Source: Halorhabdus tiamatea SARL4B (GTDB lineage Archaea > Halobacteriota > Halobacteria > Halobacteriales > Haloarculaceae). Taken from it: DNA of 64,000 bases. Location: positions 186,001 to 250,000 of the forward strand of contig NC_021913.1 in NCBI RefSeq assembly GCF_000470655.1, given 5' to 3'. Below, piece after piece: positions 26,621 through 63,975 of the stretch (position 1 is the first letter of the stretch; the number at the start of each line of letters is the position of its first letter). Under the pieces are notes generated by a model. It saw nothing but the letters and a program-made list of their open reading frames with translations, was not told where the DNA came from and searched no databases. The position numbers and the translations under genes were made by a program.

Positions 26621-26651
26621 ACCCCCGCACCCCTCTCAGGGGCGATAAACA
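26621..26651 (-). promoter_or_regulatory. hairpin leader, copy 7 (DUF6166 gene 2)
   Basis: Minus strand: GTTTATCGCCCCTGAGAGGG then GTGCGGGGGT. A clear representative of the family: TATA-like box, CGCCCC/GGGGTG stem, TGAGA loop. Confidence 0.75.
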
Positions 26652-45822: not shown

Positions 45823-48195
45823 TCAGGTGTCGGAGAACCGGTCGGGCTCGATTCGTGACAACCGCATCGCGTTCCCGGTGACGCCGAGGCTCATCCCCAT
45901 ATCTCCGACAACGACTGCCAGCGCAACGCTGACCAGGCCCAGCGGCACGCCTAACGCGAGCAGAAGCTTCACGCCGAGGCTCGCCCAGATGTTCTGCCGG
46001 ATCACGCCGTTGGCCGTATGCGACAGGTCGTACAGGTACGGGAGTTTCCCGATGTCGTCGCCCATCAACGCAATATCAGCCGTTTCGAGGGCGGTGTCGG
46101 TGCCCGCCGCGCCCATCGCGATGCCGACCTCCGCAGTGGCGAGCGCGGGGGCGTCATTGATGCCGTCGCCGACCATCGCGACCTCCCCGTACTCCGCCTG
46201 TAACTCCTCGACTGCGTCGACCTTCTCGTCGGGCAGGAGTTCGGCGCGATACTCATCGACACCGACCTGCTCGGCGATGGCGCGGGCGGTGCCCTCGTTG
46301 TCGCCGGTCAGCATCACCACGCGCTCGACGCCCAGCTCGTGCAGGCGTTCGACAGCCCGCTTCGAGGCCGGGCGCACCTCGTCGGCGATGGCGATTGCAC
46401 CCAGCAGTTCCGACTCCGTCCCGACGATAACGACCGTCTTGCCCTCCCGCTCCAGTGAGGTGAGCGCGTCCTCGGCGAATGCCCCGTCGTCGTACTCGGC
46501 CGCCTCTTCCGCCGCGACGCCGCCGTCCGTCTCGCGGCGTGCCCGAGCGAGGTCGAAGCCCAGCTCCTCGAAGAGCGCGGGCTTGCCCGCATAGTACGTC
46601 TTGCCGTCGATCTCCCCGCGGATGCCCTTTCCGGTGAGGCTCTCGAAGCCACTCGGGTCGGGCAGGTCGCCCACGCCCGCCTCCTCAGCACGGGCGAGAA
46701 TCGCCGCAGCGATGGGGTGCTCACTGCGCCGCTCCAGCCCGGCGGCGCGACGGAGCAGATCATCCTCAGTGGTGTCGCCGACCGGGACGACATCGGTGAC
46801 GGCGAGTTCGCCCTTCGTGAGCGTCCCCGTCTTGTCGAGCGCGACGGCATCGACTTCGCCCATCGCTTCGAGGTAGTTGCCGCCCTTGATCAGGACGCCG
46901 TTCTTCGCGGCGCTGGTGATGCCCGACACCACCGAGACGGGTGTGGAGATGACGAACGCACAGGGGCAGGCGATTACCAGCAGGGTGAGCCCGCGGATGA
47001 ACCAGGTCTGCCAGTCGCTCGCGAAGGTGAACCCGTACCCGGCCAGGTCGACCGAGATGGGGTCGGCGATGACCAGCGGCGGGATTGCGGCGGTCAGGAT
47101 TGCCAGCACGACGACGAGGGGTGTGTAGTAGCCGGAGAAGCGGTCGACGAACTGCTCAGACTCGGTCTTCTTCGCCTGTGCGCCCTGGACCATCTCGATG
47201 ATGCGCGAGAGCGTCGAATCGCCAGCGGTCGAGGTGACCTCTACCTCGAGGTACCCCTCTTCGTTGATCGCGCCGGCGTAGACCTCGTCGCCGGCAGTCT
47301 TGTCGACGGGGACGCTCTCGCCCGTGATCGGCGACTGGTCGACTGCACTCTCGCCGTCGATGACCGTTCCGTCGAGCGGAATCTTGTCGCCGGGGCGGAC
47401 GACGACGGTCTCGCCAACGTCGACCTCCTCGGCGGGAACGGTCACTTCCTCACCATCGCGAAGGACGGTCGCCTCGTCGGGCGAGAGTTCCATCAGCTCG
47501 CGCAGGGAGTCCCGTGCCCTGTCCATCGCGTAGTCCTCGAGCAGCTCGGCGATGCTGAATAGGACGGCCAGCGTGGCGGCCTCGACGAAGTAGCCGATAC
47601 CGGTCGCCGCGATGATCGCCGTCCCCATCAGCAGGTCGATGTCGAGGCTTCGGTTCTTCGCGGAGTAGTACCCGCTACGGACGACGGGGATGCCGCTGGC
47701 GGCGACGGCGCCGAGGAACAGGACATCTGCGATGTGGAGCGGGTACTCGAGGACGCTCGCCACCGTGGCGTTCTGTCCGGTGAGGAGAAACTCGAAGAGG
47801 AGGCCGAGCGTGACGAACGCCGCGCCGAGCCACGTCTTCTTCGCGCGAGGACTTGTCCAGACCTCCGATGGTGGCGCGATGTCGACGCCGTCGGTCGCCT
47901 GGTTGTCCTCATCATCGCCCTCGGCGTCCGAGCCCCCGACGACCTCGTAGCCGGCGCCTTCAATCGCCTTGACTACGTCGGCTTCGCTAGTTCGATCAGG
48001 GTCGTACGTGACGTTGGCCGTGCCGGTGGTCGGCTGGAGCGTGGCGTCAGTAATGCCGTCGACACGCTGGAGGCTCTTGTCCACCTTTTGGGCGCAAGAG
48101 GGACAGTCCATCTCGGGAACGGCGAGGCGGGCGGTCAGCTCACGTCGCTGTCCGCCGCCGCTCGTCCCCCCTGCTGCGTCCGGATTCTCTGTCAT
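45823..48195 (-). CDS. heavy-metal P-type ATPase (Zn/Cd/Pb type)
   Basis: 790 residues from MTENPDAAGGTSGGGQRRE; longer starts run into the promoter palindrome. An N-terminal HMA domain has MDCPSC; the transport motif is ACPCAFVISTP; phosphorylation site DKTGTLT; ITGESVPV, SEHPIA and GDGINDAPALA are all present. The final helix VVGDMGMSLGVTGNAMRL and the Lys in NIWASLGVKLL fit zinc/cadmium exporters. It expels the metal ion from the cytosol using ATP. The preceding HTH_10 gene is the likely regulator. Confidence 0.95.
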   Translation of the reverse strand: MTENPDAAGGTSGGGQRRELTARLAVPEMDCPSCAQKVDKSLQRVDGITDATLQPTTGTANVTYDPDRTSEADVVKAIEGAGYEVVGGSDAEGDDEDNQATDGVDIAPPSEVWTSPRAKKTWLGAAFVTLGLLFEFLLTGQNATVASVLEYPLHIADVLFLGAVAASGIPVVRSGYYSAKNRSLDIDLLMGTAIIAATGIGYFVEAATLAVLFSIAELLEDYAMDRARDSLRELMELSPDEATVLRDGEEVTVPAEEVDVGETVVVRPGDKIPLDGTVIDGESAVDQSPITGESVPVDKTAGDEVYAGAINEEGYLEVEVTSTAGDSTLSRIIEMVQGAQAKKTESEQFVDRFSGYYTPLVVVLAILTAAIPPLVIADPISVDLAGYGFTFASDWQTWFIRGLTLLVIACPCAFVISTPVSVVSGITSAAKNGVLIKGGNYLEAMGEVDAVALDKTGTLTKGELAVTDVVPVGDTTEDDLLRRAAGLERRSEHPIAAAILARAEEAGVGDLPDPSGFESLTGKGIRGEIDGKTYYAGKPALFEELGFDLARARRETDGGVAAEEAAEYDDGAFAEDALTSLEREGKTVVIVGTESELLGAIAIADEVRPASKRAVERLHELGVERVVMLTGDNEGTARAIAEQVGVDEYRAELLPDEKVDAVEELQAEYGEVAMVGDGINDAPALATAEVGIAMGAAGTDTALETADIALMGDDIGKLPYLYDLSHTANGVIRQNIWASLGVKLLLALGVPLGLVSVALAVVVGDMGMSLGVTGNAMRLSRIEPDRFSDT

Positions 48196-48231
48196 CACGT
48201 CACGGTAGGGGCGGGAGTTCGATATGTCTTT

Positions 48232-48247
48232 GTTGGAATATTCCAAC
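48232..48247. promoter_or_regulatory. perfect palindrome before the metal ATPase
   Basis: GTTGGAATATTCCAAC, 16 bp perfect, 37 bp upstream of the ATG at 48195 and 8 bp after the regulator stop. A likely operator for metal-dependent control. Confidence 0.55.
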
Positions 48248-48255
48248 TGCGGCCC

Positions 48256-49005
48256 TCAGTGCGATGCCAGCCGCTCTTCCGCTACCCGCTCGCCGGCGAC
48301 ATGTTGCTTCGCCAAATGTTCTTCCGCCCGACGGAGTCGGTAGGTGAGTGTTGACCGTGGCATGTCGAGATGCTCGGCGAGCTTGCCGACGTCAACCTCG
48401 CGGGGCGACTCGTAATAGCCGTGTTCGACCGCGGCCTGAAGAGCGGCCTCCTGGGCTGGCGGTAGGCCGCTCGGTGTCCCGTCGCGTCCCCCAGCTGATG
48501 TCGTCGTATCCGCGGTGCGGAGCATCTCCATCTGGGCGCACTCCCCGACGGCAACCCCGAGGGAATCGAAGAACGCCGCCACATCGCCCTCGTCGGAGTG
48601 AATGAGCCGCCACGTGTAGTGGCGGCCCTCGTGACGGGTCTCGAACAGCACACCGTCGCCGAGGTGGTCGCGGGCGATGTGGGGGACTGAGGCACAGGCA
48701 GGGGTCCGCTCCCAGTCGGAGTAGAGGATGAGCGTGTCGTCCGTGCGGTCGAGGACACGGGTGGTCTGGGTTGCGCCGCAGTCCTCGGTGGCGAGACAGT
48801 CGGCGTAGTAGTCGCTGTTGCGAAACGCGTCCTCGATGGCGTCGAGTGCGTCCGGAGTGCCGGTGGCATGGTCGACTCGCCAGAGCTGGTCGGCAGTGGC
48901 GTGCAGCGAGAGTGAACGAACGCGAGCGTCGGGGTGGTCTGCGAGGGCGTCCGCCACCCTGTTGCAGCCGGGCTCGTATTCGAGAGCGAAGACGAGTTCG
49001 CGCAT
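48256..49005 (-). CDS. bat-type HTH_10 regulator, probably metal-responsive
   Basis: 249 residues from MRELVFALEYEPGCNRVADAL. Cys/His residues are frequent in the N-terminal half (PGCNRV, ADCLATEDCGATQ, PACASVPH), which could sense metal. C-terminal HTH_10: LPPAQEAALQAAVEHGYYESPREVDVGKLAEHLDMPRSTLTYRLRRAEEHL. Directly upstream of the P-ATPase and in the same direction. Confidence 0.85.
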   Translation of the reverse strand: MRELVFALEYEPGCNRVADALADHPDARVRSLSLHATADQLWRVDHATGTPDALDAIEDAFRNSDYYADCLATEDCGATQTTRVLDRTDDTLILYSDWERTPACASVPHIARDHLGDGVLFETRHEGRHYTWRLIHSDEGDVAAFFDSLGVAVGECAQMEMLRTADTTTSAGGRDGTPSGLPPAQEAALQAAVEHGYYESPREVDVGKLAEHLDMPRSTLTYRLRRAEEHLAKQHVAGERVAEERLASH

Positions 49006-49066
49006 ACCCCGACTAAGGCCTGCCACGACATAACCCATGGCTTGGGGCGATGTCTACTGGCGGGTA

Positions 49067-49351
49067 TCAGATCACGTCGTCCGGGTCGTGAACCTCCTGC
49101 ATTCGCTGTGCTTCGGCCGCGTATTGCTCCTGGAGGTCGGGGTCATCGACCATGCCAAGATTGCCGGGTTCAGCATCGACTGCTGCTGTCGTGTCTCGGA
49201 CGTCGGTGAAGGACGTGAGTGCGCGTTCCTTCCGATAGTACTGTTCTCCATCGGGTGTTGCGTAGGTGAGGATGATCAGGTTCTGCTCGTCATCGGAGTA
49301 CGTCCGTTCGACAAGCCAAACACGAACGTCATCTTCAGACTGATTTGACAT
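49067..49351 (-). CDS. hypothetical small protein
   Basis: 94 residues from MSNQSEDDVRVWLVERTYSDDEQNLIILTYATPDGEQYYRKERALTSFTDVRDTTAAV. A beta-strand-rich N-terminus and a helical tail. No family recognised with certainty. Confidence 0.6.
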   Translation of the reverse strand: MSNQSEDDVRVWLVERTYSDDEQNLIILTYATPDGEQYYRKERALTSFTDVRDTTAAVDAEPGNLGMVDDPDLQEQYAAEAQRMQEVHDPDDVI

Positions 49352-49388
49352 ACTTAGACATCCCCCGATATCCACTAAGGGATTGGTG

Positions 49389-50051
49389 TTACGACTTGCC
49401 GAGACTCGCTGTCTCGAAGGGTGATTCTCCGGTCGGAATGAGCAGCTCCTGTCGGTCTCCGACCCGCTCAGCGAGCTTCCGTTTCAGATACTGTCTCGCC
49501 GTTGACGGTGTGAAGACGCCCTTGTCGAGCATGTCGCCGACGACGTCTTTGAGGGCCGCGAACTGCCCCTGCAGGTGGCCGTCGCCGACCGGCTCGCCGT
49601 CGTACCAGCGCACCGTCGCAAGCGCGCCGTTCCCGACCGTCTCTCCCTGTTCGACTGTCTCCGAATCGTACTGCAACCCGAACCACAGCGTTCGGTAGGC
49701 GGTCACCTCGAACGTCGTCGACACCACGAAGAACGCCTCGTGGTGGAGGTAGTCGAGGTGGTCAGCGACGATCTCGTCGAGGGTGAGCCCGGTGGCGCTG
49801 GGCTTCGGCTCGACGACCGTCGACGGTCGATCCTCGCCGGGGAGGTAGCCGTCGACCGCATCTGCCTCGAGGCCATCGGCCAGCTCTGCCAGCAGCTGTT
49901 TCGCCCACTTGGAGTCGGTATCGTCGCCACCGAACGGGGTTTCAGCCGAAATCCGGTGCTTGAGCTTGAGGTTCGCTGCGCCCCAATGGCTGTAGTGGAG
50001 CGTGTACTGTCCGTCTGTGCGTTCGTACGCAACGAGTGCGCGGTGTCCCAT
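49389..50051 (-). CDS. DUF6735-like protein
   Basis: 220 residues, MGHRALVAYERTDGQYTLHYSHWGAANLKLKHRISAETPFGG at the start, TTFEVTAYRTLWFGLQYD in the middle. I recognise the N-terminal block as the haloarchaeal DUF6735 family, often on mobile DNA; function unknown. Leader copy 16 upstream. Confidence 0.7.
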   Translation of the reverse strand: MGHRALVAYERTDGQYTLHYSHWGAANLKLKHRISAETPFGGDDTDSKWAKQLLAELADGLEADAVDGYLPGEDRPSTVVEPKPSATGLTLDEIVADHLDYLHHEAFFVVSTTFEVTAYRTLWFGLQYDSETVEQGETVGNGALATVRWYDGEPVGDGHLQGQFAALKDVVGDMLDKGVFTPSTARQYLKRKLAERVGDRQELLIPTGESPFETASLGKS

Positions 50052-50087
50052 CGAGCAATCACCTCACGGGGCGATCGCGACTGGATC

Positions 50088-50124
50088 TCCCCGCACCCCT
50101 CCCGGGGGAAGAAAAACAAACAGC
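50088..50124 (-). promoter_or_regulatory. hairpin leader, copy 16 (DUF6735 gene)
   Basis: Minus strand: GTTTGTTTTTCTTCCCCCGG then GAGGGGTGCGGGGAG, about 37 nt before the ATG. Confidence 0.72.
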
Positions 50125-50200
50125 TGTGACCGGTTCGAACAGCCTACTGGGTTAGTTCTGTCCCGGCGATTATTCATAGTCCTGTACTAATAGTGGGGCA

Positions 50201-51583
50201 ATGTCATTAGAGTCGGAAGAAATTCACCAGCTGCTAGAATGGGCAATTGACTGGCAACACGATATCAGCCGTAATTCGACACCTGATGCGTTTGAAGCAA
50301 GCGAACGCTCGTCGTCACCGTGGGCTCGCCATCGTTCAAATTATGCGTTCGAGAAACTAGCACAGGAGACTTTCCCGCTCTATGACTTGGGAATTGCTCC
50401 ATCTGATATAATGTCAGATGTGATGGGCATCATCCAAGACCTGGCATTCGAATCGGACGCTGAGGTAGACTGGGACGAATATCACTATCCCGTTGAGGAA
50501 TCGATTGAAGAAGATGGACTGGTATCGACGTACGAGGCAAAAGTCAATCAGGTCATTGCTGAAATCGGGCAGGGTGAGCAACTGGAAACTATCTTCTATT
50601 TCCCGTTGAATATACAATGGGCTGGCTCTCCGCCAGAAATTGAGATTTTCGATATTACCTTCCAGCCAATCTCTGAGTCTGAATGGTCTGAGCAGCTTTC
50701 AGAATTTAGAAGGTATCCCGACACATTCGGAACTGGGACGGTGGAGTCGCTGTGTGAGGATACAGATTATAGCTATTGGACGACGACTATTCAGTCGAAA
50801 GGACGTAGCTATGCAGCGAATAAGCTCAATACTGCTCTGAATCTGTTGTGTGCGAAGATCAATCATACACTCTATTGTTGGGAAATTCAGCGATTGAGCG
50901 AGCGGGACCAGTCCTCGCCAGGGAACCCACGGTGGTCATGGATACAAGAACCGATGGCTGTCCTTACAGCTGGCACTGACCATCCATTAGAGGTCGCCAT
51001 CACCAATAGGAGTTCACCTCGCACTGTGGACTTGGATTGGACTAATGGAGATCTGCCGGAGCGGTTTGAGGAGATCCCGTCCTTCAATTATGGCGCTGAT
51101 GGACTTGCAGGGATATTCCAAGATGCTCTTTTAGAGTATCAGCGAGCAATGCTCGAGACAGAACGTCAGAATGCATTTTTCGGATTTTGGCGGTGTATTG
51201 AAGAACTCACATTAGCTGGGCACGGTGAAAAAAGCGAAATCGTTGACCGGGCGATGTGGGCATATAGTGTCAGTGCCAGTGAGGCCCACGAAATATTTTT
51301 CAAAACCATCACTGAGCAGCTCTATGACACACGGAACAAATGGGTCCACGAAGCAAACTGGGGGGACATCTGGGAAATCCATGAACGCGTGGCCAAGTAC
51401 TTAGCTGATTCATTGATTCAATTATATATAGACGATTTCTATGGGCTGGATCAAAACGTGGTGGCAGAGGCCTTCCGATATGCCCGTATGGAAGAGCCCC
51501 AGCGAGAAAAGAAGCAACGCCAGGCCAAACAACGTCTGGAGGCACTAAATGAACTCAATAATATCGAGCAAGACTGTCCATAG
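50201..51583 (+). CDS. HEPN-domain protein, ApeA-like
   Basis: 460 residues. The N-terminal 300 residues are unassigned, beta-rich from about 125. The C-terminal 130 residues are a HEPN-like helical bundle: LLEYQRAMLETERQNAFFGFWRCIEELTL ... ITEQLYDTRNKWVHEANWG, with RNKWVH as the RX4H catalytic motif. This layout resembles Apea-like abortive-infection RNases. The gene is lower in GC than its neighbours and lies on the opposite strand, signs of separate transfer. Defence role is inferred. Confidence 0.65.
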   Translation: MSLESEEIHQLLEWAIDWQHDISRNSTPDAFEASERSSSPWARHRSNYAFEKLAQETFPLYDLGIAPSDIMSDVMGIIQDLAFESDAEVDWDEYHYPVEESIEEDGLVSTYEAKVNQVIAEIGQGEQLETIFYFPLNIQWAGSPPEIEIFDITFQPISESEWSEQLSEFRRYPDTFGTGTVESLCEDTDYSYWTTTIQSKGRSYAANKLNTALNLLCAKINHTLYCWEIQRLSERDQSSPGNPRWSWIQEPMAVLTAGTDHPLEVAITNRSSPRTVDLDWTNGDLPERFEEIPSFNYGADGLAGIFQDALLEYQRAMLETERQNAFFGFWRCIEELTLAGHGEKSEIVDRAMWAYSVSASEAHEIFFKTITEQLYDTRNKWVHEANWGDIWEIHERVAKYLADSLIQLYIDDFYGLDQNVVAEAFRYARMEEPQREKKQRQAKQRLEALNELNNIEQDCP

Positions 51584-51741
51584 TTGATTTGGCGGTTTAC
51601 AGGTTGGGCAAGTAGTGTGCGAAGCTCTCCGGCGGAGTCCTGAGCTAGCGAAGGTCTCGGAGAACTTCGACCCTCGCGATTCCGATGTCGTGGTCCGTAA
51701 GGTCCTAAACTTTCGTAGACCTCAAAGTCATCGTAGCCGTT
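51584..51741 (-). ncRNA. possible TnpB guide-RNA end
   Basis: Downstream of the tnpB stop, the minus strand holds GGTC-TACGAAAGTTTA-GGACC, CTCCGCCGGAG and GGTCGAAGTTCTCCGAGACC, several small stem-loops. By analogy with TnpB elements a guide RNA would end near here; the exact end is unknown. Confidence 0.3.
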
Positions 51742-53550
51742 CTAATTTTCGGCAGGATTTGGAAGCACCTCGTGGGAATCGTTCGTGCTGACGAGCAAAC
51801 ACTGCCTCGTAATGCTCCCGCTGGGACACCGCAGTCCCGTCTTCCTGCTCTGATTTTGTTGCAGTCCTTCCTCTGCCCGGCTTCGTGTCGTAGTGAGGGA
51901 CGAAGAACGGTACTCGGACAATCGGGTCTGACGGCCACTCGCCGGGTCCTGTTCACTGTTGGCCGCGGACTGAACGCCAGGCACCGACACGGTTTCTGAA
52001 TCCTCCGTGCCGGCCTCAGAACGGACACGCTCGCAGGTGGGGCGTGATGGAAAGCTGGCGTGATTTCCCCGCGCCGTGTAGACACAGGGATTCGCCGTTT
52101 CCATCCGACTCCCAGAGAGGTGTTTTCGTCCGACATTGACCGCGCCGACCACATCTCGGTCGCACTCATACTCACAGCTGGGACAGTAGAAGTGGCCGCC
52201 GTTGCGTAACTCGGTGTGATCTGTCGGGGCCTTCACGGTCTTGCCGCGTTCGCCACATCGCGGACAGTAGCGTGATGTCCCCCAGGGATTCACCGTCTCG
52301 ACGTCGAGCCCGAGGAGGTCACCCTTGTACCGGAGCCGCTCAAGTAACTTCCCATGGGCCCACGTCGAGATGCTCCATGCCGTCACGCCACCCGTCTCTT
52401 CGGCCTCAAACTGCCCTAGCGACTCGAGGACGATCGTCTCGCACTCGTGAACGGCCGCGAGCCACACCAGCTGATTTGCTACATCGTGCTGGATCTGGTC
52501 GCGGAGACGTCGCTCCTTCCGTCGCGTCCGGCGATATTCGCTGAGGAGGTGAGCGAACTGCTCGGTATGGCTCTTGCCCTGTTGGCGGAGTTCGGCAAGG
52601 CGGCTGTCTATGCCCTCGGCGTCGGCTTTCACTCGAAACAGTTTGTCCTTCGCGTGGTGGTCGACGAAGTTGGGTGGCGCGATCTGGGATTCATCTTTCC
52701 CGTCTTCAGATCCGTCTAACACAACCGCAGTTGCCTGCTTTTTCACGCCGAGGTCCACAGCGAGAACACGGTCGGAAGTGGTGTCTACGGAGGTCTCGGG
52801 AACATCCACTGGCACGTCCAGCGTATAGCCGTATTCGGAGGAATGCAGTGTCGGCGCTTTCAGCTCCCCTGCCTCAAGCATCTCGTTGAACCGTTGGTGG
52901 GCTGGGAACCGTATTTCGTGCTCTGTCCAGTCGGCATACGAGTTGGGCGATAGCGAATCCGGCGCCTTCAGCATCACCACGACTTCTCCGTCCGCGGCTT
53001 GGACCTCGTGGATGTCTCCACGACTGTCCGGGCCGAAGGGAACCGTGTCGTCGGGCTGGGGACAGTCGACGAGGTCCGTGTATGCTTCAGGAAATCGGCC
53101 ATTCCGGTCGTAATGATTGTTTAGCTGCTCGACGACGGTTTCGATATTGCTCCACTGGATGTACGGTGAGTCTCCACTATCGAATAGGCGGCTTCGAAGC
53201 TGCTGCCATCCAACCCGCCTGATTTTTCGTTCCTCGACAGTTTCGACGATGAACTGGAAGGCACGGTACTTCTCACGATGAGCTTTTAGAATCCGAGTAA
53301 CACGATGGTAGATACATCGCTTGAATCGGTTGTAGAGGTATGCGTCTGTGTCCTCGAACGGCTCGTACTCGTCGTCTCGGACGTAGGTGTGGTCGTTGCT
53401 ATCGCGGGACTGAATCGCTTCGAGGTGCCTGTCTCGCCAGTATTCTTCCTTGAGCAATCGACGGAGATGGCGTTGCCCGAGCTCTAGGATTCGGGAACAG
53501 GCAGCGTGATACTCTCGGGGAATATGGAATTGTTCAGTGAGGTGGGTCAT
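51742..53550 (-). CDS. tnpB: large TnpB/Cas12-type RuvC protein with its own hairpin leader
   Basis: 602 residues from MTHLTEQFHIPREYHAAC. RuvC acidic residues are all present: Asp in VLAVDLGVKKQATAVV (about 265), Glu in ETIVLESLGQF (about 373) and Asp in CDRDVVGAVNVG (about 465). Zinc finger CPRCGERGKT...CPSCEYEC. Residues after about 480 (GNHASFPSRPTCERVRSEAG... to PNPAEN) are Ser/Arg-rich and look unstructured; this stretch may double as guide-RNA scaffold. No TnpA and no clear element ends; the promoter is leader copy 17, as for resident genes. Confidence 0.85.
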   Translation of the reverse strand: MTHLTEQFHIPREYHAACSRILELGQRHLRRLLKEEYWRDRHLEAIQSRDSNDHTYVRDDEYEPFEDTDAYLYNRFKRCIYHRVTRILKAHREKYRAFQFIVETVEERKIRRVGWQQLRSRLFDSGDSPYIQWSNIETVVEQLNNHYDRNGRFPEAYTDLVDCPQPDDTVPFGPDSRGDIHEVQAADGEVVVMLKAPDSLSPNSYADWTEHEIRFPAHQRFNEMLEAGELKAPTLHSSEYGYTLDVPVDVPETSVDTTSDRVLAVDLGVKKQATAVVLDGSEDGKDESQIAPPNFVDHHAKDKLFRVKADAEGIDSRLAELRQQGKSHTEQFAHLLSEYRRTRRKERRLRDQIQHDVANQLVWLAAVHECETIVLESLGQFEAEETGGVTAWSISTWAHGKLLERLRYKGDLLGLDVETVNPWGTSRYCPRCGERGKTVKAPTDHTELRNGGHFYCPSCEYECDRDVVGAVNVGRKHLSGSRMETANPCVYTARGNHASFPSRPTCERVRSEAGTEDSETVSVPGVQSAANSEQDPASGRQTRLSEYRSSSLTTTRSRAEEGLQQNQSRKTGLRCPSGSITRQCLLVSTNDSHEVLPNPAEN

Positions 53551-53570
53551 TTGTTGGCCTCGTGGTTCTC

Positions 53571-53603
53571 TCCCCCGCACCCCTTCTGGGGGGCAATAAA
53601 CAG
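53571..53603 (-). promoter_or_regulatory. hairpin leader, copy 17 (large tnpB)
   Basis: Minus strand: GTTTATTGCCCCCCAGAAGG then GGTGCGGGGGAG, about 22 nt before the ATG. Confidence 0.72.
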
Positions 53604-53644
53604 CCTCAGGAGCGAGACATCCGGATTCATCGTTATACCGCCGC

Positions 53645-53833
53645 TCAGGACTCGATCTGTGTTCCGGCGTCCCCGCTGTCTTCCGGCTGGGAGAGCAGAC
53701 TCACGTCTTGCAGGAGAGCTCTCGCTGCCTCTATCCGCTCCTGATCTGCGTTGTCGAGTCCGGCCGTCTCGATGCGTTTGAGATTGGTGAGTGAGCGATG
53801 CAGTCGATATCCGGGTGTGTTGCGTGGGTCCAT
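53645..53833 (-). CDS. small hypothetical protein (62 aa)
   Basis: MDPRNTPGYRLHRSLTNLKR IETAGLDN... a helical protein with acidic end SQPEDSGDAGTQIES. Leader copy 18 immediately upstream supports it as a gene. Confidence 0.6.
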   Translation of the reverse strand: MDPRNTPGYRLHRSLTNLKRIETAGLDNADQERIEAARALLQDVSLLSQPEDSGDAGTQIES

Positions 53834-53838
53834 TTGAA

Positions 53839-53870
53839 GCGCCTCGCCGATTCACGGCGCAGAGAAACCT
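53839..53870 (-). promoter_or_regulatory. hairpin leader, copy 18
   Basis: Minus strand: GGTTTCTCTGCGCCGTGAAT then CGGCGAGGCGC, ending 5 nt before the ATG. Confidence 0.6.
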
Positions 53871-53907
53871 CTCCGGCTGCGGGTAGCTGTCGGACGGGGC
53901 CTGCTCG

Positions 53908-53949
53908 TTAACCAACATTGGTGTGTTTCTGTGTCGCTATGTTGGTTAA
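53908..53949. repeat. long inverted repeat, TTAACCAACA family, site 6
   Basis: TTAACCAACA at 53908-53917 and TGTTGGTTAA at 53940-53949, perfect arms, just before the stop codon of the 53946 gene; the last bases overlap that gene. Over 31 kb from the other five. Confidence 0.76.
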
Positions 53950-54842
53950 GGCGAGTCCTGACCCGCTTTGCTGGGTCCGTAGCGAGCTGAGCCACACACC
54001 CGGCACTCCCAGATCGGTTGCCCCGTCCACGCTTCATCCGGGACCGACTCGTGGGTCTTGAACTGATGGTCGGTCGCCCGTCCACAGGTTTGACAGTCGA
54101 GTTCCTGCGTCGTCGGTACCGACGACACCTGGCGGTCAGCCGCAGCCTCGCCAGTAGATTCGGTCAGCGCCATCGCTGGAACCAGCCACACCGCGTCGTC
54201 GGCATCGTCGAGGACCGCGTCGAGACGCGACGCGTCGCGGATGCCGTCCCCACGCTGGTCGTAGAGCCGCGTCGGGGCCTGCTCCTGACGCTCCGACGCT
54301 CCCTGCCCGCGCCACCCAGTCCGGTCACGGGCGGCACTGAGAAGCCGCTCTCCCTCCGCTGACGACACCTGTACCGCGTCGGGGAGTGAGGGCCATTGCT
54401 CGACCAACTGGCGCGCCGGCGCCTCGTCGAGATCGTAGATGAGCGTGTAGTCGTCGACGGCCGGCTCCGCCTCGTTGGCGGAGAGGAGGTTCGCCGCGGC
54501 ACCGCCCTTCGCGACGGCGCCGTAGAACGTGGTCGACTCGACGACCAGGTGGATGATGCCGAGGACCGTCGTCGACGCTGTCTCGTTCGTGCTAGTGGCG
54601 TCACTTCCGAGATGGTTAGAGAGGCAGAACCGGCATTTCGTCTGGCCGTCTGGGACTGATGCCCCACAGGACCGGCACTCGCCGTCGGTTACCGTCGGCG
54701 CATCAGGGTAGCCACCAGAGCTCGTCGCGACGCGTTGCCGCCGGGGGGCACCCTCACAGCCGTCGTCCAGCCTCGTGTCCGGAATGTGGGACGCCTCGCC
54801 AGTCGGCCGCAGTTCCTCAAAGTCGGAGTAACGACCGTTCAT
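53946..54842 (-). CDS. zinc-finger protein of haloarchaeal plasmids
   Basis: 298 residues from MNGRYSDFEELRPTGEASH. Zinc ribbons near both ends: CRSCGASVPDGQTKCRFC (about 58-75) and CQTCGRATDHQF...CRVCGSARYG at the C-terminus. The centre (STTVLGIIHLVVESTTFYGAVAKGGAAANLLSANEAEPAVDDYTLIYDLDEAPARQLVEQWPSLPDAVQVSS) is a folded domain I cannot name. No leader copy lies in front of it. Confidence 0.65.
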   Translation of the reverse strand: MNGRYSDFEELRPTGEASHIPDTRLDDGCEGAPRRQRVATSSGGYPDAPTVTDGECRSCGASVPDGQTKCRFCLSNHLGSDATSTNETASTTVLGIIHLVVESTTFYGAVAKGGAAANLLSANEAEPAVDDYTLIYDLDEAPARQLVEQWPSLPDAVQVSSAEGERLLSAARDRTGWRGQGASERQEQAPTRLYDQRGDGIRDASRLDAVLDDADDAVWLVPAMALTESTGEAAADRQVSSVPTTQELDCQTCGRATDHQFKTHESVPDEAWTGQPIWECRVCGSARYGPSKAGQDSP

Positions 54843-54936
54843 AGAGCAGTCTACAGAGAACATGGCTCGTCTTCGTGTTTAAATCGTAGCGTGGATAGAC
54901 CGATGTGCAGTACAGACGGAGAGACAGTGGACTGCC

Positions 54937-55863
54937 TCAGGCGACCCGTTCCTCCAACGTATCCCGGTGTGCCCGAACAGTCGCCTTCGAGGCGTTCGCC
55001 ACGTCCGCGGCCTCGGATTGCGTCAGCCATCGCCCCTCCTCGCGACCGGCCTTGTAGAGGCAGGCCGCGGCGAACCCGGCCGGATGGACGCCCGTCGTGA
55101 CGCCGCGCTCCTCGGCCTGTTCCGCGAGGGCTCGGGCCCGCTGTCGGATTTCGTCCGGACACTCGAGGTCCGAGGCGAGGCGCGGCACGAACATGCTGGG
55201 GGAGACGGGCTCAGCGGGGAGGCCCAGCTCTTCGTTCAGCGTTTTGTACGCGTTCGTGACTCGTGACTCCGCGAGGCGGGCCATCTCGCTGACGTCGTCC
55301 ACTAACCGCGAGAGGCCGTTGCACCGGCAGGCTCCATAGACGCTGGCCGCGGCGATGGCCTCGATGGATCTGCCTCGAAGCAGATCCTCGTTCTGGGCGC
55401 TCCGGAAGAGCTGGCACGCCTGGTCGCGAACCGAATCGGAGAGCTCGAGCGCACTCGCCAACCGACGCACCTCGCCCAGTCCGTGAGCGAGATTCCGTTC
55501 TGCTTTCGACCGCCAGCGACCCCGGGTCTGCTCACGGCGCATCCGCGCGAGTCGCCGTCGCTTCTGCCCAGAGATCTCGTTCCCCTTCGCGTCGGTGCCG
55601 CGACCGATCTCCGTCGACAGGCCGCGATCGTGGCGGGCCGCAGTGAGTGGAGCACCCGTTCGCTCGCACTCCTCGTCGTCGTACGCCCGCCACTCCGGCC
55701 CGTGATCGATGCGCTGTTCGTCGATGACCAGCCCACAGTCCTCGCAGACCGTTTCGACCGCGTTCGTGGTGACCTGGCCGTCGCACTCGGGACACTGGTT
55801 CGCACTCGATTCCGTTCGGACGTCTTCGTCGAATCCGCTCTCGTAGATGTCTCTGGTTGCCAT
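54937..55863 (-). CDS. tfb: transcription initiation factor TFB (TFIIB homologue)
   Basis: 308 residues from MATRDIYESGFDEDV. Zinc ribbon CPECDGQVTTNAVETVCEDCGLVIDEQ (about 24-50), B-finger/linker region GPEWRAYDDEE...GTDAKGNEISGQKRRRLARMR, then two cyclin folds (about 105-205 and 215-305, including SIEAIAAASVYGACR and GVTTGVHPAGFAAACLYKAGR). It recruits RNA polymerase to promoters. Plasmid TFB copies are common in haloarchaea and can give promoter specificity. Leader copy 19 precedes it. Confidence 0.93.
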   Translation of the reverse strand: MATRDIYESGFDEDVRTESSANQCPECDGQVTTNAVETVCEDCGLVIDEQRIDHGPEWRAYDDEECERTGAPLTAARHDRGLSTEIGRGTDAKGNEISGQKRRRLARMRREQTRGRWRSKAERNLAHGLGEVRRLASALELSDSVRDQACQLFRSAQNEDLLRGRSIEAIAAASVYGACRCNGLSRLVDDVSEMARLAESRVTNAYKTLNEELGLPAEPVSPSMFVPRLASDLECPDEIRQRARALAEQAEERGVTTGVHPAGFAAACLYKAGREEGRWLTQSEAADVANASKATVRAHRDTLEERVA

Positions 55864-55899
55864 CGTTCTCACCGTGTTCAGGGAACCCGCCAGTACAGC

Positions 55900-55933
55900 G
55901 AGCCCCTCACCCATTGAGGGGGTAGAAAAACTG
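55900..55933 (-). promoter_or_regulatory. hairpin leader, copy 19 (tfb)
   Basis: Minus strand: GCAGTTTTTCTACCCCCTCA then ATGGGTGAGGGGCTC, about 37 nt before the ATG. Shows that the TFB gene carries the same leader as many of its neighbours. Confidence 0.7.
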
Positions 55934-56019
55934 CACGACAGCTACGTCAGTGACTCATAGATCAGATAAGAGTACGGCAAAGATTCGCTGGCACTAGAGA
56001 GTGTCTCTATGGAATCCGA

Positions 56020-57162
56020 TCAACTGGGAAACATCCCTTCGACTGTCGGACTATACAACATCGCTTCCACCAAATCCGGAGGCACGGCATTTCCTACGAC
56101 TCTTTCGGCCGCGCTAATTCGATCAGGTAGTTCGAACTCTCTCGGAAAAGTCATCAGTAGTGCAGCTTCACGAGGAGTTATACTCCGGTTAGCTTCGGGA
56201 TGAGTGAATCGGCCACAACTTGGGGTCGTGCAGCGCGTCGTAAGAGTTGGTGCTGGCTCTTTCCACGCCATTCTCCCATAGGCTGAGCCAGCACCTGAAT
56301 CAATATTCTGATGGCACTCTCGGATGAGATCCTCGTGCTCGGTTCCTCGGAGATCCATCCAACTTCCTCCGTCGTCAGGGATTGCCTCCATTAGATCGAT
56401 GGTTTTCTGCCGATGATTCCTCGCTCGATGGGCTGGATCGTCATCCTGTTTTTCTCCCTTTGACAAGTTCACCAGATCGTCTCGAACGATCGCGTCTTGG
56501 ACCCACCTCCATCGCTCTCGTTCGTCGTCCTCATCCGGATTTTCTGTGTGTGTTGGTGACCGAACTGCGATGTCGTCTGAGTCCGCACCGTACACACATA
56601 CGCCGATGGTTCGCTTCCTCCGTTGCGGAATCCCGTAGTTGGCGGCATTAACGAGTTTCAGGTTCACACCGTATCCGCCCTGTTCTTCGGTGTCCTCCTC
56701 GCGCGTCACTTTCTCCATTTGATTGCGAAACCACTTGATATAGGCACCCTCTCCCGAACTGAGGATGCCTTGGACGTTCTCGAAGAACACGAGATCGGGC
56801 TTTTCCTCCCGAATCCGTTCAACAAATGCCCGGAGTAAGTCGTCCTTCGGTTCGTCCTCTGGCCAGGGCGTAGTGTCTCTAAGTGAGCTGAAATTCTGGC
56901 ATGGAGGACAGCCACAGATTACGTCTACTTCTCCCTTTTCGAGGCCGAAGTGGTCGCGAATCTCGTCGAAAGTCGTTTCCTCTAAATCTGCTTGCAGAGG
57001 TTCAAAGTCGACTATCCCCTCGTCCGTGAGATTTCGTTCGTACGTGTCGAGTGCGTCTTCGTCGATGTCAACCGCACCTCTTATTTCAAACCCTGCCTGG
57101 TGAAATCCGAGAGAAGCCCCACCAGCGCCGCAAAAGAGGTCAACCACGGTACCTCTGCTCAT
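56020..57162 (-). CDS. drmMII: C5-cytosine DNA methyltransferase, DISARM DrmMII
   Basis: 380 residues, MSRGTVVDLFCGAGGASLG (motif I). Motif IV CGCPPCQNFS holds the catalytic Cys, motif VI is VFFENVQG, motif VIII QRRKRTIGV and motif X VVGNAVPP; the target-recognition domain lies at about 240-320. It marks host DNA. In class 2 DISARM the methylase gene follows drmC, as here, 114 bp downstream. Confidence 0.9.
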   Translation of the reverse strand: MSRGTVVDLFCGAGGASLGFHQAGFEIRGAVDIDEDALDTYERNLTDEGIVDFEPLQADLEETTFDEIRDHFGLEKGEVDVICGCPPCQNFSSLRDTTPWPEDEPKDDLLRAFVERIREEKPDLVFFENVQGILSSGEGAYIKWFRNQMEKVTREEDTEEQGGYGVNLKLVNAANYGIPQRRKRTIGVCVYGADSDDIAVRSPTHTENPDEDDERERWRWVQDAIVRDDLVNLSKGEKQDDDPAHRARNHRQKTIDLMEAIPDDGGSWMDLRGTEHEDLIRECHQNIDSGAGSAYGRMAWKEPAPTLTTRCTTPSCGRFTHPEANRSITPREAALLMTFPREFELPDRISAAERVVGNAVPPDLVEAMLYSPTVEGMFPS

Positions 57163-57276
57163 TACTTACCCATACAAATTCCGACGTCTAATTTTTTGTG
57201 CTTCAGGTGAAGGTCCCCGTTGGCGAACGAGGAGCGTCGCACCTCCATAGAGTGTGGGTTAAGCGCTGCCGACATT

Positions 57277-58197
57277 TTATCGTAATAATGGTAGTTCGAC
57301 CGGGTCAGCAGCTGCGAACACGTCGTCGAAAACTGCTGCGGTTCGCGTGGCCGGAGCTCCCTCTACGATGATCCCAAATTCGAAATTGGCGCTCAGATTC
57401 GTCTTGGTGAGGTTAGCCGAGCCGACGTAACAGCTAGTTTCATCGACGATGGCAAGTTTCGCGTGGGTTGCGAGCTTGTGCCTGCCCCAATCCGTTTCTT
57501 CGTATAGATCGCGAACTTCTAGACGCGATCGACCTTCTCGATCAAGGCCCTCGTGTAACGTGTTTAGCGCATCAATAAGGTCGTCACCAGGATCTTCTGT
57601 CTCACGAGTGAGAACGCGTAGGTTGACCCCTCGTTGGGGCAAGCTTGCGAGGTCGTCGACGATGCGCTGGTCAGCGTCGAAGTAGGGATTCGCGATCCGG
57701 ACTGTGTCACTGGCCCCGAGGACTAGGTCCCGGGCCCGAGCACTAATCGCGCCAACGGCGTCACCCTCACTGAGAGTCACACCGTCCGGAAGGGTCGCAA
57801 CTAAACTGACGTCGGGTGCACTCTTACGCGAGCGTTCCGTAACCTCTTCGATAGCCAACGCCGCGACGTACTGGCGATCGAGAGTGCGTGCCGCCAATTG
57901 CGGAGATACGCGAAAGGTGTAATCGGCGTAACGATCTCCTGTCGAAATCTGCTCGGCCTCAGCGTCCGTCGCGAGGCCAACAAAGACAGCCTCTACTGCC
58001 CGCGCCGACAGAGTGTATTCCGAGGGTGCGTATTCCTGCAGCGTAGTTTGATTCACCGTGGTTTGGGGTGAGTCCCGAAATTTAGCGAACCCGTCACGAA
58101 GGTGTTCGATTACACTTGGTGGAAGTTGCTGGGCGATTGCGAAATCCCGAGGTGGGTCATCGAAGCCGACCATATTGTTCTCCTCCCCGTCCGGCAT
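57277..58197 (-). CDS. drmC: phospholipase D-type protein, DISARM DrmC
   Basis: 306 residues from MPDGEENNMVGFDD, 4 bp after the drmB stop. The HKD motif reads HAKLAIVDETSCYVGSANLTKTNL in the C-terminal third; an earlier half-motif is not clear, so a dimer may form the active site. DrmC is the PLD-family member of DISARM, and is dispensable in the system that was studied. Confidence 0.88.
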   Translation of the reverse strand: MPDGEENNMVGFDDPPRDFAIAQQLPPSVIEHLRDGFAKFRDSPQTTVNQTTLQEYAPSEYTLSARAVEAVFVGLATDAEAEQISTGDRYADYTFRVSPQLAARTLDRQYVAALAIEEVTERSRKSAPDVSLVATLPDGVTLSEGDAVGAISARARDLVLGASDTVRIANPYFDADQRIVDDLASLPQRGVNLRVLTRETEDPGDDLIDALNTLHEGLDREGRSRLEVRDLYEETDWGRHKLATHAKLAIVDETSCYVGSANLTKTNLSANFEFGIIVEGAPATRTAAVFDDVFAAADPVELPLLR

Positions 58198-58201
58198 ACT
58201 A

Positions 58202-60133
58202 TCACACGTTCCAAAACGCAGGCGTAGCTGGTCCACCGACGAGCGCTCGCCGGTCGAGGTGCTCGTTGAACGCCTCACAAGTGACGGTCGTTAGATGAAG
58301 GCAAGCGTGACACGCAGCACCGTCGTCGTCCTGACTGCACGCGGGGTCGAGCAGGCACTGTTCGGCAAAGTCGATCGTGTGGTCTACCCACGGGTGAATT
58401 CGAGTCTCGAAGAGGGTCGACATCCCACCGAGTGCGAAGTGTTCGGTCGACTTCGCGTACAGAATAATGGCCGGGACGTTCGGTAAGATCAGCTCGGAAA
58501 TGCTGTCAGTCGCGAGGCCACACTGATCAGATGCCGTGGAAACCAGTGCGTGGCTCATGCTGTGTAAGAGTCGATACGCCGATTCGGTGGGTTCGTGATC
58601 GACATCAGAAAATGGATTGTCGACGGCTACGGGATCGACGTTGTTCAAGAGCCACTTCTGGTACGTTTCGTCGCTGGCGTCAGCGTCCGGCGTTACCGAT
58701 TCGTCGACGACGTTGGCGTCAACTAACCACTCCACGAGGGCCTTGCGGTCGACCTCGAGAATCAGCGCTTCTGACGGACTACGATCGGCGAAAACGGGAA
58801 TCGTCCCCTCGTCACCGTAAGGATGATCGAACGCGTTCAGGTCGACCTGAGACGGATCTGGAAGTTCCCGGTAATAGCCGTAGAGCACCGAAAGTAGCGG
58901 GAAGTTGTCCACCACCCACACTTCGTTCACGTTGATTCGATCCAGCTTATCCTGGTACTTTCGAGCTCGCGGGTACCTCTCTTTGAACTCTGGGGTGAGA
59001 ACATCCGAAAGTTTCCGCGGTTCTGGGTACGTGCTCGGATCGTAATCGTCGTGTTCGGGATCTCCTTCGTACCCTTCCGTTGAGCGGATGAATGTGAATA
59101 GCTGGTCAGCGATCAGAGAGTACGCTCGCTGTTCTCGAGTTTCGTCGTCGCCTTCGGTACCAGGTGGGTCGATTTCACCTCGGGTCTTCTCTGTCACGTA
59201 CTCACTCGTCAAGTGGTCGACGGCGCGCCCCGCGTCAGCCTGCATTTGGAGGTACCTTTCGATTTCATCCTCGGTGTATCCCTCTTCGCGAAGGTTCTCG
59301 ATTTGTTCTTGCTCCCCGGCGCGAGTCACCATATCCTCGATCGTGTTGTCTTCCGTGAGGGGAACGTCGTCGTCAGTAAATGCAGCCATCAATACCCTCG
59401 CCCAGGACTCCTCTCGTTCTAGCTCGTCACGGTCCATCCCGACTGGCGGAATGGCCACCTGAAGTAACGTGGCTGGATAGTATATCCCCCCACCACCTGG
59501 TGGCGTCGGTCCTCCCACGTACTCGTTACAATCTTCGCAAAAGGCACCTAGCGGGCCCATGTCGTCCCCACAATAGTCACAGCGGAACCTCCACGTTGCG
59601 GGGTCCCGGGTAGGCTTGTGTAAATACGGCGCGACGTAGTCGTGCGTTTCGCATTCGTCAGTTGGTCCGGGAGGAAGCGCGTTACCACACTCGTGAGTGA
59701 CGACGAATGGAACTTGTTGCAATCTGCCCTGGCATCCGTCTCGAGGACAGTCACCGGGATTCTTGTCTTCGCTGTCAGTCGCGTAGTAGTCAGTCGGATT
59801 TTGTCTGATGTCTACGCGACGGCACTCCGGTTGATCACACACCATCGTCAGAGGGAACAACCGTCCTTCGACCTTGCGTGGACGATAAGCGTCGAGGTCA
59901 GCGGGAGAGAGTTCGTTCCACGGAGACTCGTCCGCGTTACGGAATCGATCCGCTTGACTACGCATCTCCCCGGTCACTCGGGCGACTGGCAGATCGTTGA
60001 ACTGCCGCACCTTCACTCCCTTGTCTTTCACCCGCATCGCAACGTCATACTCTCCGTAGTCGAACACGTTTCCGGGGCCGAAATTGTACAGTACCTGTGC
60101 GATGCCCCGCATCATGTCGGCCTCTTCGTCCAT
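58202..60133 (-). CDS. drmB: DUF1998 protein, DISARM DrmB
   Basis: 643 residues. Several Cys clusters (CDQPECRRVD, CPRDGCQGRL, CDYCGDDMGPLGAFCEDC) and the C-terminal DUF1998 block HSMSHALVSTASDQCGLATDSISELILPN...ILYAKSTEHFALGGMSTLFETRIHPW...CLLDPACSQDDDGAACHACLHL. DrmB forms a complex with the DrmA helicase on invading DNA. 83 bp separate it from drmA. Confidence 0.9.
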   Translation of the reverse strand: MDEEADMMRGIAQVLYNFGPGNVFDYGEYDVAMRVKDKGVKVRQFNDLPVARVTGEMRSQADRFRNADESPWNELSPADLDAYRPRKVEGRLFPLTMVCDQPECRRVDIRQNPTDYYATDSEDKNPGDCPRDGCQGRLQQVPFVVTHECGNALPPGPTDECETHDYVAPYLHKPTRDPATWRFRCDYCGDDMGPLGAFCEDCNEYVGGPTPPGGGGIYYPATLLQVAIPPVGMDRDELEREESWARVLMAAFTDDDVPLTEDNTIEDMVTRAGEQEQIENLREEGYTEDEIERYLQMQADAGRAVDHLTSEYVTEKTRGEIDPPGTEGDDETREQRAYSLIADQLFTFIRSTEGYEGDPEHDDYDPSTYPEPRKLSDVLTPEFKERYPRARKYQDKLDRINVNEVWVVDNFPLLSVLYGYYRELPDPSQVDLNAFDHPYGDEGTIPVFADRSPSEALILEVDRKALVEWLVDANVVDESVTPDADASDETYQKWLLNNVDPVAVDNPFSDVDHEPTESAYRLLHSMSHALVSTASDQCGLATDSISELILPNVPAIILYAKSTEHFALGGMSTLFETRIHPWVDHTIDFAEQCLLDPACSQDDDGAACHACLHLTTVTCEAFNEHLDRRALVGGPATPAFWNV

Positions 60134-60216
60134 ACGTTACCACCTCACCGGCGGGACAGGCTCGTTAACGAGGGCTCTCTGGACGGTTGGATTTGCCGTA
60201 AGGTGTGCTGTCGAAG

Positions 60217-63200: not shown

Positions 63201-63975
63201 CTCTCACTTGGACGCGCAAATCCCCCTCCCAAAGGGGATCTACGACGTCACTGGAGTAGGTTTCGTCGATCCACCCGCGAAACGCTGACTCGTCTTCGAG
63301 AAGCCTCTCCGGGATCTCTCGACCTTCGCGTTCGCTCGTGTCGTTGGGTAATTCGCGAAACGTGAGGGGATCGTCACGAACTGTTTCCTCTGCGGCAGCG
63401 AACGCCGAAGACAGCGAGACCACTTTCGGACGTGATTCGTCAGCGAGAGAACGGAGGTCAGATCCAGTGAGGGCCAACTCATCTCCGCAATGTTCTACCA
63501 AGTCTAGCTCGATTCGTTCGTACACTGGAAGCAAGTCGACTACTGCTTCTTCTTCTTCGTCGGCACTTTCCTCGTCGCCACCGTCCGATCTGAGTTCACG
63601 CCCACCGTCCGTTGCCTCCTGTGGCACGTCTGGTTGATGGCGCGACGATTGAGGCCCTCCGCGTTCGTAGGTCGGCGTGCGGTGCAGGTGCCTTTCTCCC
63701 CCACGTTCACGCTGTTCGTCGACCTCTGGAAATCGACGATAGTAGACGTTGGCACTGGGCGTCAGCTCGACGGTCGCGTCGTCGTCGATGTTCGTGGGAA
63801 CGCGGAACGTCACCCCAATACGGAAGGGGGCGACATCTTCCGCAATGTCCTGAAACGCTTCGTCCTGAGCCAGAGCCTCGCGATATTTGTATTGGGAGGC
63901 GAGAACTCCTGCAAAGTATTGTCGAGACGGTTTAGATCCGTAGTGCGTTTGCTCGTTCGGACCCCGACCAGTCAA
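60217..63975 (-). CDS. drmA: SF2 helicase, DISARM DrmA (5' end at or beyond window edge)
   Basis: 1252 residues are visible. Helicase motif I YYPTGGGKTEAYLG (about 540), motif II IIQDELHLL (about 780), and motifs V/VI TSMISHGIDIERFNFIAFHGTPRSTAEYIQSYSRVGREHPG (about 1010-1050). A CPFCGNE...C zinc patch lies near 660. The first possible start shown is a TTG at 63975, but the frame stays open to the edge, so the gene may begin outside. DrmA is the DNA-translocating core of DISARM. Confidence 0.92.
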   Translation of the reverse strand: MTGRGPNEQTHYGSKPSRQYFAGVLASQYKYREALAQDEAFQDIAEDVAPFRIGVTFRVPTNIDDDATVELTPSANVYYRRFPEVDEQRERGGERHLHRTPTYERGGPQSSRHQPDVPQEATDGGRELRSDGGDEESADEEEEAVVDLLPVYERIELDLVEHCGDELALTGSDLRSLADESRPKVVSLSSAFAAAEETVRDDPLTFRELPNDTSEREGREIPERLLEDESAFRGWIDETYSSDVVDPLWEGDLRVQVREESRDEGENRFVIEATLVNTHGADYPDADDYEYKMWRAFLFDVGIDASVDGPDITPFQLDEIRDEYQYDGRMYAVGENCAAEPIYPAEERNPLADPDPVGVRTVTLPVYEQSKYLPREPIPLQFDVLADNASLSEEDLPAHVLEDLPEQVNGTDEIDLDDLLLILQNEMERAEGHYLDVGDEVLSDKSDEAERRFEEAISSFRDERRRFEQGRKLIRDDDRVREAFTLLNETFIEMGDFPGWRLFQLVFIVMSIPDIVAQADPDREVTNRLDTADVIYYPTGGGKTEAYLGLVTFTAFHDRLRGKEYGTTALTKFPLRFLSLEQLQRAAEVLGHAELVRREDGLEGDPFSVGYFVGKDNVPNKLMDERRYDRVDRIQEAKDDPPEDQDHEFLILSECPFCGNESVEIDGDHERARVDHVCTHSECPWVKLHDGEEPLPVYVTDREVYRHAPTFVVSTIDKISIVGMQRRFRTLLGHIEARCPHHGFTGEEDCLVDDYDYPSKHTCDNEDLVEVDSVDPPSLIIQDELHLLREEFGSFDSHYETLLQTLAEEFGDGWQMKVVAATATIKGAERQVEALYRREHNTFPAQGPRLKQSFYAYAHPRKVGRNMIGGIPRNVSRTFAINRIHEEQARIVQEFQENPAELDGAIADRDPNEGEYDYDELDFSPGEDERKDELIDVLDDYEVQVSYHYAKDNTQLMKRSVRTMINRNLATADGNYHTLRPVLMTGETPLSLVRTYKDEIEADREDREEPIHVVIATSMISHGIDIERFNFIAFHGTPRSTAEYIQSYSRVGREHPGSVYMSFHPMQVKDQSHYHQFHHHHEYEDLLVEATPLERWAKYGIEQTFSGLFCALFLQLFDGEYGGELSERLYDWEGLQEAIHRDEIDVDRQRVENLLARAYDVHDASPSDADAASIYSERLEKMFDDLWPALIDAEPDDDNTFLPHVFGTLTDENDEALVGAREPMTNLRDIDEQIPIEPDTNTAKAINLFTNQ

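What the first reader, a model, noticed from the sequence alone, without database searches (positions are those of the whole stretch)
51584..53603. Large TnpB that behaves like a resident gene
All RuvC residues are kept, but no TnpA or clear element ends are seen, and transcription would start from the same hairpin leader as the plasmid cassettes. The odd 120-residue tail may be the translated guide scaffold. It could be a domesticated RNA-guided nuclease for plasmid competition.
Basis: partly seen in the sequence, partly recalled or inferred. Interest (0 to 1): 0.6.

Follow-up and report, generated by a model that had tools for sequence, protein, structure and literature searches.

The report
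Immobilised RNA-guided nuclease on a plasmid
A gene-cutting enzyme that normally belongs to a jumping gene has lost one end of its transposon, runs from the plasmid's own promoter region, and still carries a guide matching a gene found on rival plasmids, so it may now serve plasmids in competing with or converting one another.

Summary
The large TnpB is real (minus strand, 53550-51742; D266, E376 and D466 kept). Its ~114-residue tail is the translated omegaRNA scaffold. In the tail, synonymous sites are as constrained as the rest and the frame carries no protein signal. Helices covary (21 of 33 pairs), and conservation runs past the stop codon of relatives to a fixed right end, GAAAAT(C/T)AGAACGG.

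About 25 distant copies keep a left end preceded by RGGG (the inferred TAM) and a DUF2080 gene. The window's clade (six intact copies, several host families) has lost both. It sits directly behind a hairpin leader found in this genome only on the plasmid.

After the right end follow 18 nt identical in all copies, then the remnant of a 127-codon plasmid gene. That gene is intact on dozens of sister plasmids as GGGG + target: an empty site. So this is an IS-derived TnpB that became a resident, selected (body dN/dS 0.16-0.38) plasmid gene.

Most likely it acts as an RNA-guided homing or gene-drive nuclease against TnpB-less sister plasmids. That is inferred: junctions fit repair at the cut site, but every known intact target has at least two mismatches to the guide. 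New variant of a known kind.

The parts
51742..53550 (-). large TnpB coding sequence, 602 aa
   Evidence: family of ~25 distant (55-65% aa) and 6 intact near-identical (93-100% aa) homologues
52087..53550 (-). TnpB protein body (residues 1-488); RuvC D266 (52753-52755), E376 (52423-52425), D466 (52153-52155), zinc ribbon
   Evidence: dN/dS 0.16-0.38 within the near clade; catalytic residues invariant; aligns to Cas12f1 9i8y and 8hr5
51745..52086 (-). C-terminal tail (residues 489-602), the part of the ORF that overlaps the omegaRNA
   Evidence: dN about equal to dS, and tail dS 0.02-0.05 against body dS 0.05-0.24; third positions variable 8/114 in tail against 88/488 in body, Fisher p=0.003
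51737..51966 (-). omegaRNA scaffold / right end, ending GAAAATTAGAACGG
   Evidence: covarying helices, 21 of 33 pairs with two-sided changes, 141 cells against 42 in shuffles; universal end in distant copies
51719..51736 (-). guide, CTACGATGACTTTGAGGT (18 nt)
   Evidence: identical in all near copies; sequence diverges from position 19 on
51610..51718 (-). remnant of the disrupted 127-codon target gene (right flank; low coordinate approximate)
   Evidence: alignment to intact target genes
53573..53599 (-). hairpin leader (TTTAT-box + CCCCC..GGGGTGCGGGG) directly upstream of the TnpB ATG
50089..50115 (-). same leader upstream of the DUF6735 gene
26623..26649 (-). same leader upstream of another plasmid gene
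53645..53833 (-). 62-aa ORF upstream of the leader; its 3' half travels with TnpB in Halorubrum halodurans (L039)
49389..50051 (-). DUF6735 gene, conserved right-hand neighbour on sister plasmids (breakpoint at 50117)
53946..54863 (-). MBSP1-family gene, conserved left-hand neighbour on sister plasmids

Best explanation
This is an IS200/IS605-like TnpB that inserted into a conserved 127-codon plasmid gene at GGGG|target. It then lost its left end, its DUF2080 gene and the first 46 codons of that gene, so that TnpB now sits behind the plasmid's own hairpin leader. The transcript still carries the omegaRNA (overlapping the last ~110 codons) and an 18-nt guide against the disrupted gene. Proposed mechanism: TnpB-omegaRNA cuts sister plasmids that keep the intact gene next to an RGGG motif. 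The cut plasmid is lost, or is repaired from the TnpB-bearing plasmid, so the cassette spreads by RNA-guided homing or gene drive instead of by transposition. Its own locus is spared because the bases before the guide are ACGG, not RGGG. Shown: insertion-derived, left end lost, RNA constraint, protein selection, guide and target identity. Inferred: TAM, cleavage, homing, plasmid competition.
For: Right end GAAAAT[C/T]AGAACGG is common to the family and each distant copy has a different downstream sequence. The left end is preceded by G at -3 (21/21), -2 (20/21) and -1 (21/21), and by A/G at -4 (20/21). The empty site of relative L031 joins without a gap. The window's clade lacks the LE and DUF2080, forms one clade with support 1.0, has one copy per genome and occupies the same plasmid locus in its hosts. 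The target gene covers at least 80% of its length on 63 plasmid records, and 37/37 distinct intact genes have GGGG before the site. Body dN/dS is 0.16-0.38; the tail shows no protein constraint but low dS. omegaRNA covariation. The guide is 18/18 identical while sequence from +19 differs by 6-7/13 between two lineages, and +18 lies within the 15-21 bp cut range of ISDra2 TnpB (PMC8612924). In L039 the cassette minus its LE sits inside a split target gene, joined at a short shared sequence. A plasmid gene drive by IS605 TnpB has been shown experimentally (PMC11870625).
Against: No intact target with 0 or 1 mismatch was found (minimum 2, typically at guide positions 1, 7 and 13). The first target base is T in all 19 distant copies checked but C here, so the ancestral site is not fully explained. 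Two clade members are decayed: Haloglomus has a stop at codon 78 and a frameshift, and Halocatena is a remnant. Guide identity alone is weak against the slow body rate (P 0.03-0.23). Six of six TnpB+ genomes lack an intact target, but with about a quarter of genomes of the family carrying a match this is not significant. The switch at +18 could be an ordinary recombination junction.
Confidence: 0.55

Rival explanations
1. An ordinary, immobile relict of an IS605-like element: the left end was lost by chance, the gene is carried along on a widely transferred plasmid, and there is no new role.
For: Two of eight clade members are decaying; no perfectly matched target is known; near-identical copies in different genera fit simple plasmid transfer.
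Against: Body dN/dS of 0.16-0.38 after loss of the LE, and strong conservation of scaffold and guide, argue for continued function. Fusion to the plasmid leader close to the ATG in every copy is not random decay.
Confidence: 0.27
2. A domesticated RNA-guided regulator, TldR-like: TnpB-omegaRNA binds the target gene or its relatives and represses it rather than cutting.
For: Promoter capture and loss of transposon ends resemble TldR domestication; mismatches between guide and targets could favour binding without cleavage (inference).
Against: TldRs are nuclease-dead (own knowledge; TldR as RNA-guided transcription factor, PMC13418256). Here D266, E376 and D466 are all kept in every member. The guide lies within a coding sequence rather than a promoter.
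Confidence: 0.08
3. Still a mobile element: a remote or cryptic left end is used, moved in trans by a chromosomal Y1 transposase.
For: Four Y1_Tnp genes exist in the genome.
Against: No LE-like motif in 2.45 kb upstream and no DUF2080 in the window; one copy per genome, at the same plasmid locus; distant relatives reach 3-4 copies per genome.
Confidence: 0.07

Closest known systems
IS200/IS605 TnpB with overlapping omegaRNA/reRNA (ISDra2 TnpB; haloarchaeal sotRNAs, Rfam RF02656/RF02657)
   Different: Longer protein (core ~488 aa against ~400), an RNA not matched by any Rfam family, G-rich inferred TAM (RGGG) where ISDra2 uses TTGAT, left end lost
[quoted passage not shown]
   Same: TnpB guide targets the site on plasmids lacking the insertion; expected advantage of TnpB+ plasmids
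   Different: Here a natural cassette that has lost a transposon end and uses the plasmid's own leader; activity untested; extant targets carry mismatches
TldR (nuclease-dead TnpB-like RNA-guided transcription factors)
   Same: TnpB detached from its transposon and kept as a resident gene with a guide
   Different: Nuclease residues intact here; guide matches a coding sequence inside the disrupted gene
Cas12f (type V-F CRISPR effectors)
   Same: Nearest solved structure by sequence (9i8y)
   Different: No CRISPR array-like repeats in window 46000-60000; guide comes from a transposon right end
Homing endonucleases
   Same: Predicted spread by cutting alleles that lack the gene, with repair from the copy that has it
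   Different: Specificity from a 3' guide RNA, not protein-DNA recognition

Membership tests
TnpB (IS200/IS605-type RNA-guided nuclease) | RuvC D-E-D and C-terminal zinc ribbon | tested here: met
TnpB (IS200/IS605-type RNA-guided nuclease) | omegaRNA at the 3' end of the gene, overlapping the ORF, ending at the element's right end | tested here: met
TnpB (IS200/IS605-type RNA-guided nuclease) | guide = DNA next to the right end, matching an empty site preceded by the TAM | tested here: met
   at this locus the match to present targets is imperfect (2 or more mismatches)
TnpB (IS200/IS605-type RNA-guided nuclease) | RNA-guided dsDNA cleavage | not testable with these tools
   needs biochemistry
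Complete IS200/IS605 element | left end present | tested here: not met
   absent in the window and its clade, present in ~25 distant relatives
Complete IS200/IS605 element | TnpA in the element | tested here: not met
   no TnpA next to the gene; Y1_Tnp only on the other replicon; distant relatives have DUF2080, not TnpA, before TnpB where annotated
TldR | RuvC catalytic residues lost | tested here: not met
Cas12f CRISPR effector | adjacent CRISPR array | tested here: not met
   no regularly spaced repeat array in window 46000-60000
Plasmid gene-drive / homing nuclease | TnpB+ plasmids displace or convert TnpB- plasmids | not tested
   junctions in L039 and at +18 are suggestive only

The most novel reading that the evidence does not exclude
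A naturally occurring, transposition-independent RNA-guided plasmid drive: a TnpB that no longer moves by transposition but is kept and spread among haloarchaeal plasmids by cutting and converting a conserved gene of TnpB-less sister plasmids, using an RGGG TAM and a fixed 18-nt guide.
Probability: 0.38. Interest if true: 0.82.

Novelty: new variant of a known kind. Interest (0 to 1): 0.6.

Why it matters
If true, TnpB can outlive its transposon as a plasmid weapon or homing gene while keeping its nuclease, a step between IS elements and Cas12 or TldR-type domestication. It gives a ready natural system (known guide, known target gene, predicted TAM, cultured hosts) for testing RNA-guided gene drive between archaeal plasmids, and a long-protein TnpB family with a G-rich predicted TAM.

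Tried and rejected
Rfam found no match to the omegaRNA. A single-sequence fold was no better than shuffles (z 0.53), so the RNA claim rests on covariation. The scans of viral contigs gave no relative of the protein and no copy of the degenerate target site. An empty site for the N. pharaonis copy was not found among plasmids. The parent of the window's own right flank was not found. Guide conservation judged against body rates alone is weak. Absence of the target in TnpB+ genomes is not significant. TldR-like repression was judged unlikely because the RuvC residues are intact; Cas12f membership was rejected because no array is present near the gene.

Full report
What is there. The ORF on the minus strand (53550 to 51742) encodes a 602-aa TnpB. 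It matches the Cas12f1-like_TNB domain at E 6.9e-18 and guided_TnpB just under that model's cut-off. Sequence-nearest solved structures are Cas12f1 (9i8y) and a transposase (8hr5). The RuvC residues D266, E376 and D464/D466 are invariant in 29 distinct members. The window lies on replicon C1 of a two-contig genome; this TnpB is single copy there, with 18 only distantly similar TnpBs elsewhere (26-35% identity over part of the protein).

The family. About 25 distant relatives (55-65% identity) occur in haloarchaea, plus six intact close copies: the window, Haloplanus sp. GDY1, Natrinema versiforme, Halobacterium hubeiense, Natrialba taiwanensis and Halorubrum halodurans. A Haloglomus irregulare copy is broken (stop at codon 78, frameshift, contig break) and a Halocatena salina copy is a remnant. 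The close copies form one clade with support 1.0 on a long branch.

The tail is the guide scaffold. In most distant members an in-frame stop interrupts the tail, yet conservation continues in the same register past it (LPNxTEN) to the same end, GAAAAT[C/T]AGAACGG, after which every copy differs. In the close clade the body has dN/dS 0.16-0.38 with dS 0.05-0.24. The tail has dN about equal to dS and dS of only 0.02-0.05. Third positions vary at 88/488 in the body and 8/114 in the tail (p=0.003). In 31 sequences RNAalifold finds 33 pairs, 21 with two-sided compensatory changes. The cells with such changes number 141 against 42 expected on shuffling, and sliding the partners destroys the pairing. 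This arrangement (guide RNA from the 3' end of tnpB) is known from ISDra2 (PMC8612924) and from haloarchaeal sotRNAs (PMC12558985).

Ends and TAM. Distant copies have a left end starting roughly T[T/A]NNNTAACTGTTAC and a DUF2080-type small gene before tnpB in most. The bases before the left end are R-G-G-G (G at -3 21/21, -2 20/21, -1 21/21; A or G at -4 20/21). For relative L031 the joined flanks match empty sites in other genomes without a gap. I infer a TAM of RGGG. In 19 of 19 distant copies checked the next base is T.

The window's locus. The right end finishes at 51737. The next 18 nt (51736-51719, CTACGATGACTTTGAGGT) are identical in all close copies. They match codons GYDDFEV of a 127-codon plasmid gene that covers at least 80% of its length on 63 plasmid records. 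In all 37 distinct intact genes examined, GGGG precedes the site. So these are empty sites, and the inferred filled site is GGGG | element | CTACGA. But on the left the element end, the DUF2080 gene and the first 46 codons of the target gene are missing. TnpB starts about 21 nt after a hairpin leader like the one before the target gene itself and DUF6735. In the window's genome that leader motif occurs four times, all on this plasmid. No left-end motif or DUF2080 remains.

Signs of spread without transposition. (a) In Halorubrum halodurans (L039) the order is target codons 1-44, the 3' half of the 62-aa ORF, leader, TnpB, right end, target codons 61-126. The left joint lies in a short sequence shared by the target gene and the 62-aa ORF (ACTCACCA). 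(b) Two lineages of close copies share the guide exactly, then differ by 6-7 of 13 bases from position 19 on, although the window's scaffold differs from the other lineage by only 4-6 of 120. The window-type flank resembles intact target genes (83/109) more than the other flank (72/111), as expected if the cassette joined a different target allele near the cut site. ISDra2 TnpB cuts 15-21 bp from its TAM (PMC8612924). Both are consistent with break-induced conversion but do not prove it; ordinary recombination could also give them. Both flank types share a 5-nt shortening relative to intact genes, which I cannot fully explain.

Function. IS605 TnpB has been shown to give plasmids an advantage over copies lacking the insertion, dependent on RuvC (PMC11870625). 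The same logic fits here without transposition. The weak point is that every intact target known has 2 to 6 mismatches to the guide, mostly at wobble positions, so present-day cutting is uncertain; the guide may record a rare or vanished allele, or the targets may have escaped. In the own genome, a search for GGGG plus the guide with up to 2 mismatches returns only the guide itself, and the own locus is preceded by ACGG, not RGGG.

Verdict. IS-derived, immobilised, leader-fused, under protein and RNA constraint: well supported. RNA-guided plasmid homing or competition: the most likely role, not shown.

Noticed in passing
window 56020-63975 (-): A DISARM-like defence locus (C5 methylase with DrmMII matches, DrmC, DrmB, DrmA) lies a few kb from the TnpB on the same plasmid.
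   Followed up: no
L050 (2775-4037), L052, L053: A different ~420-aa TnpB sits in the same slot, preceded by the leader plus the first ten codons of the large TnpB and followed by the target gene from about codon 97: one TnpB appears to have replaced another, and its flank again lies in the same 127-codon gene.
   Followed up: partly
L051 (4589-5827), L059 (4654-5892): A third TnpB type at this locus has a right end followed by GGGACATCGCGCACTC, matching the start of the neighbouring DUF6735 gene, so several TnpB families seem to target core genes of this plasmid family.
   Followed up: partly
window 24398, 26623, 50089, 53573 (-): The CCCC(N5)GGGGTGCGGGG leader occurs only four times in the 3.15-Mb genome (one with a mismatch), all on one strand of this plasmid; its position between a TATA-like box and the start codons suggests an operator or a shared leader.
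   Followed up: partly
L142 5086-5468: Halocatena salina plasmid holds a remnant: TnpB tail with an internal deletion, right end and the identical 18-nt guide, without the TnpB body.
   Followed up: partly
window 50201-51583 (+): A 460-aa ORF with no Pfam, NCBIfam or PADLOC match abuts the target-gene remnant; among the loci compared it is present only in the window, Haloplanus GDY1 and Natrinema versiforme versions.
   Followed up: no
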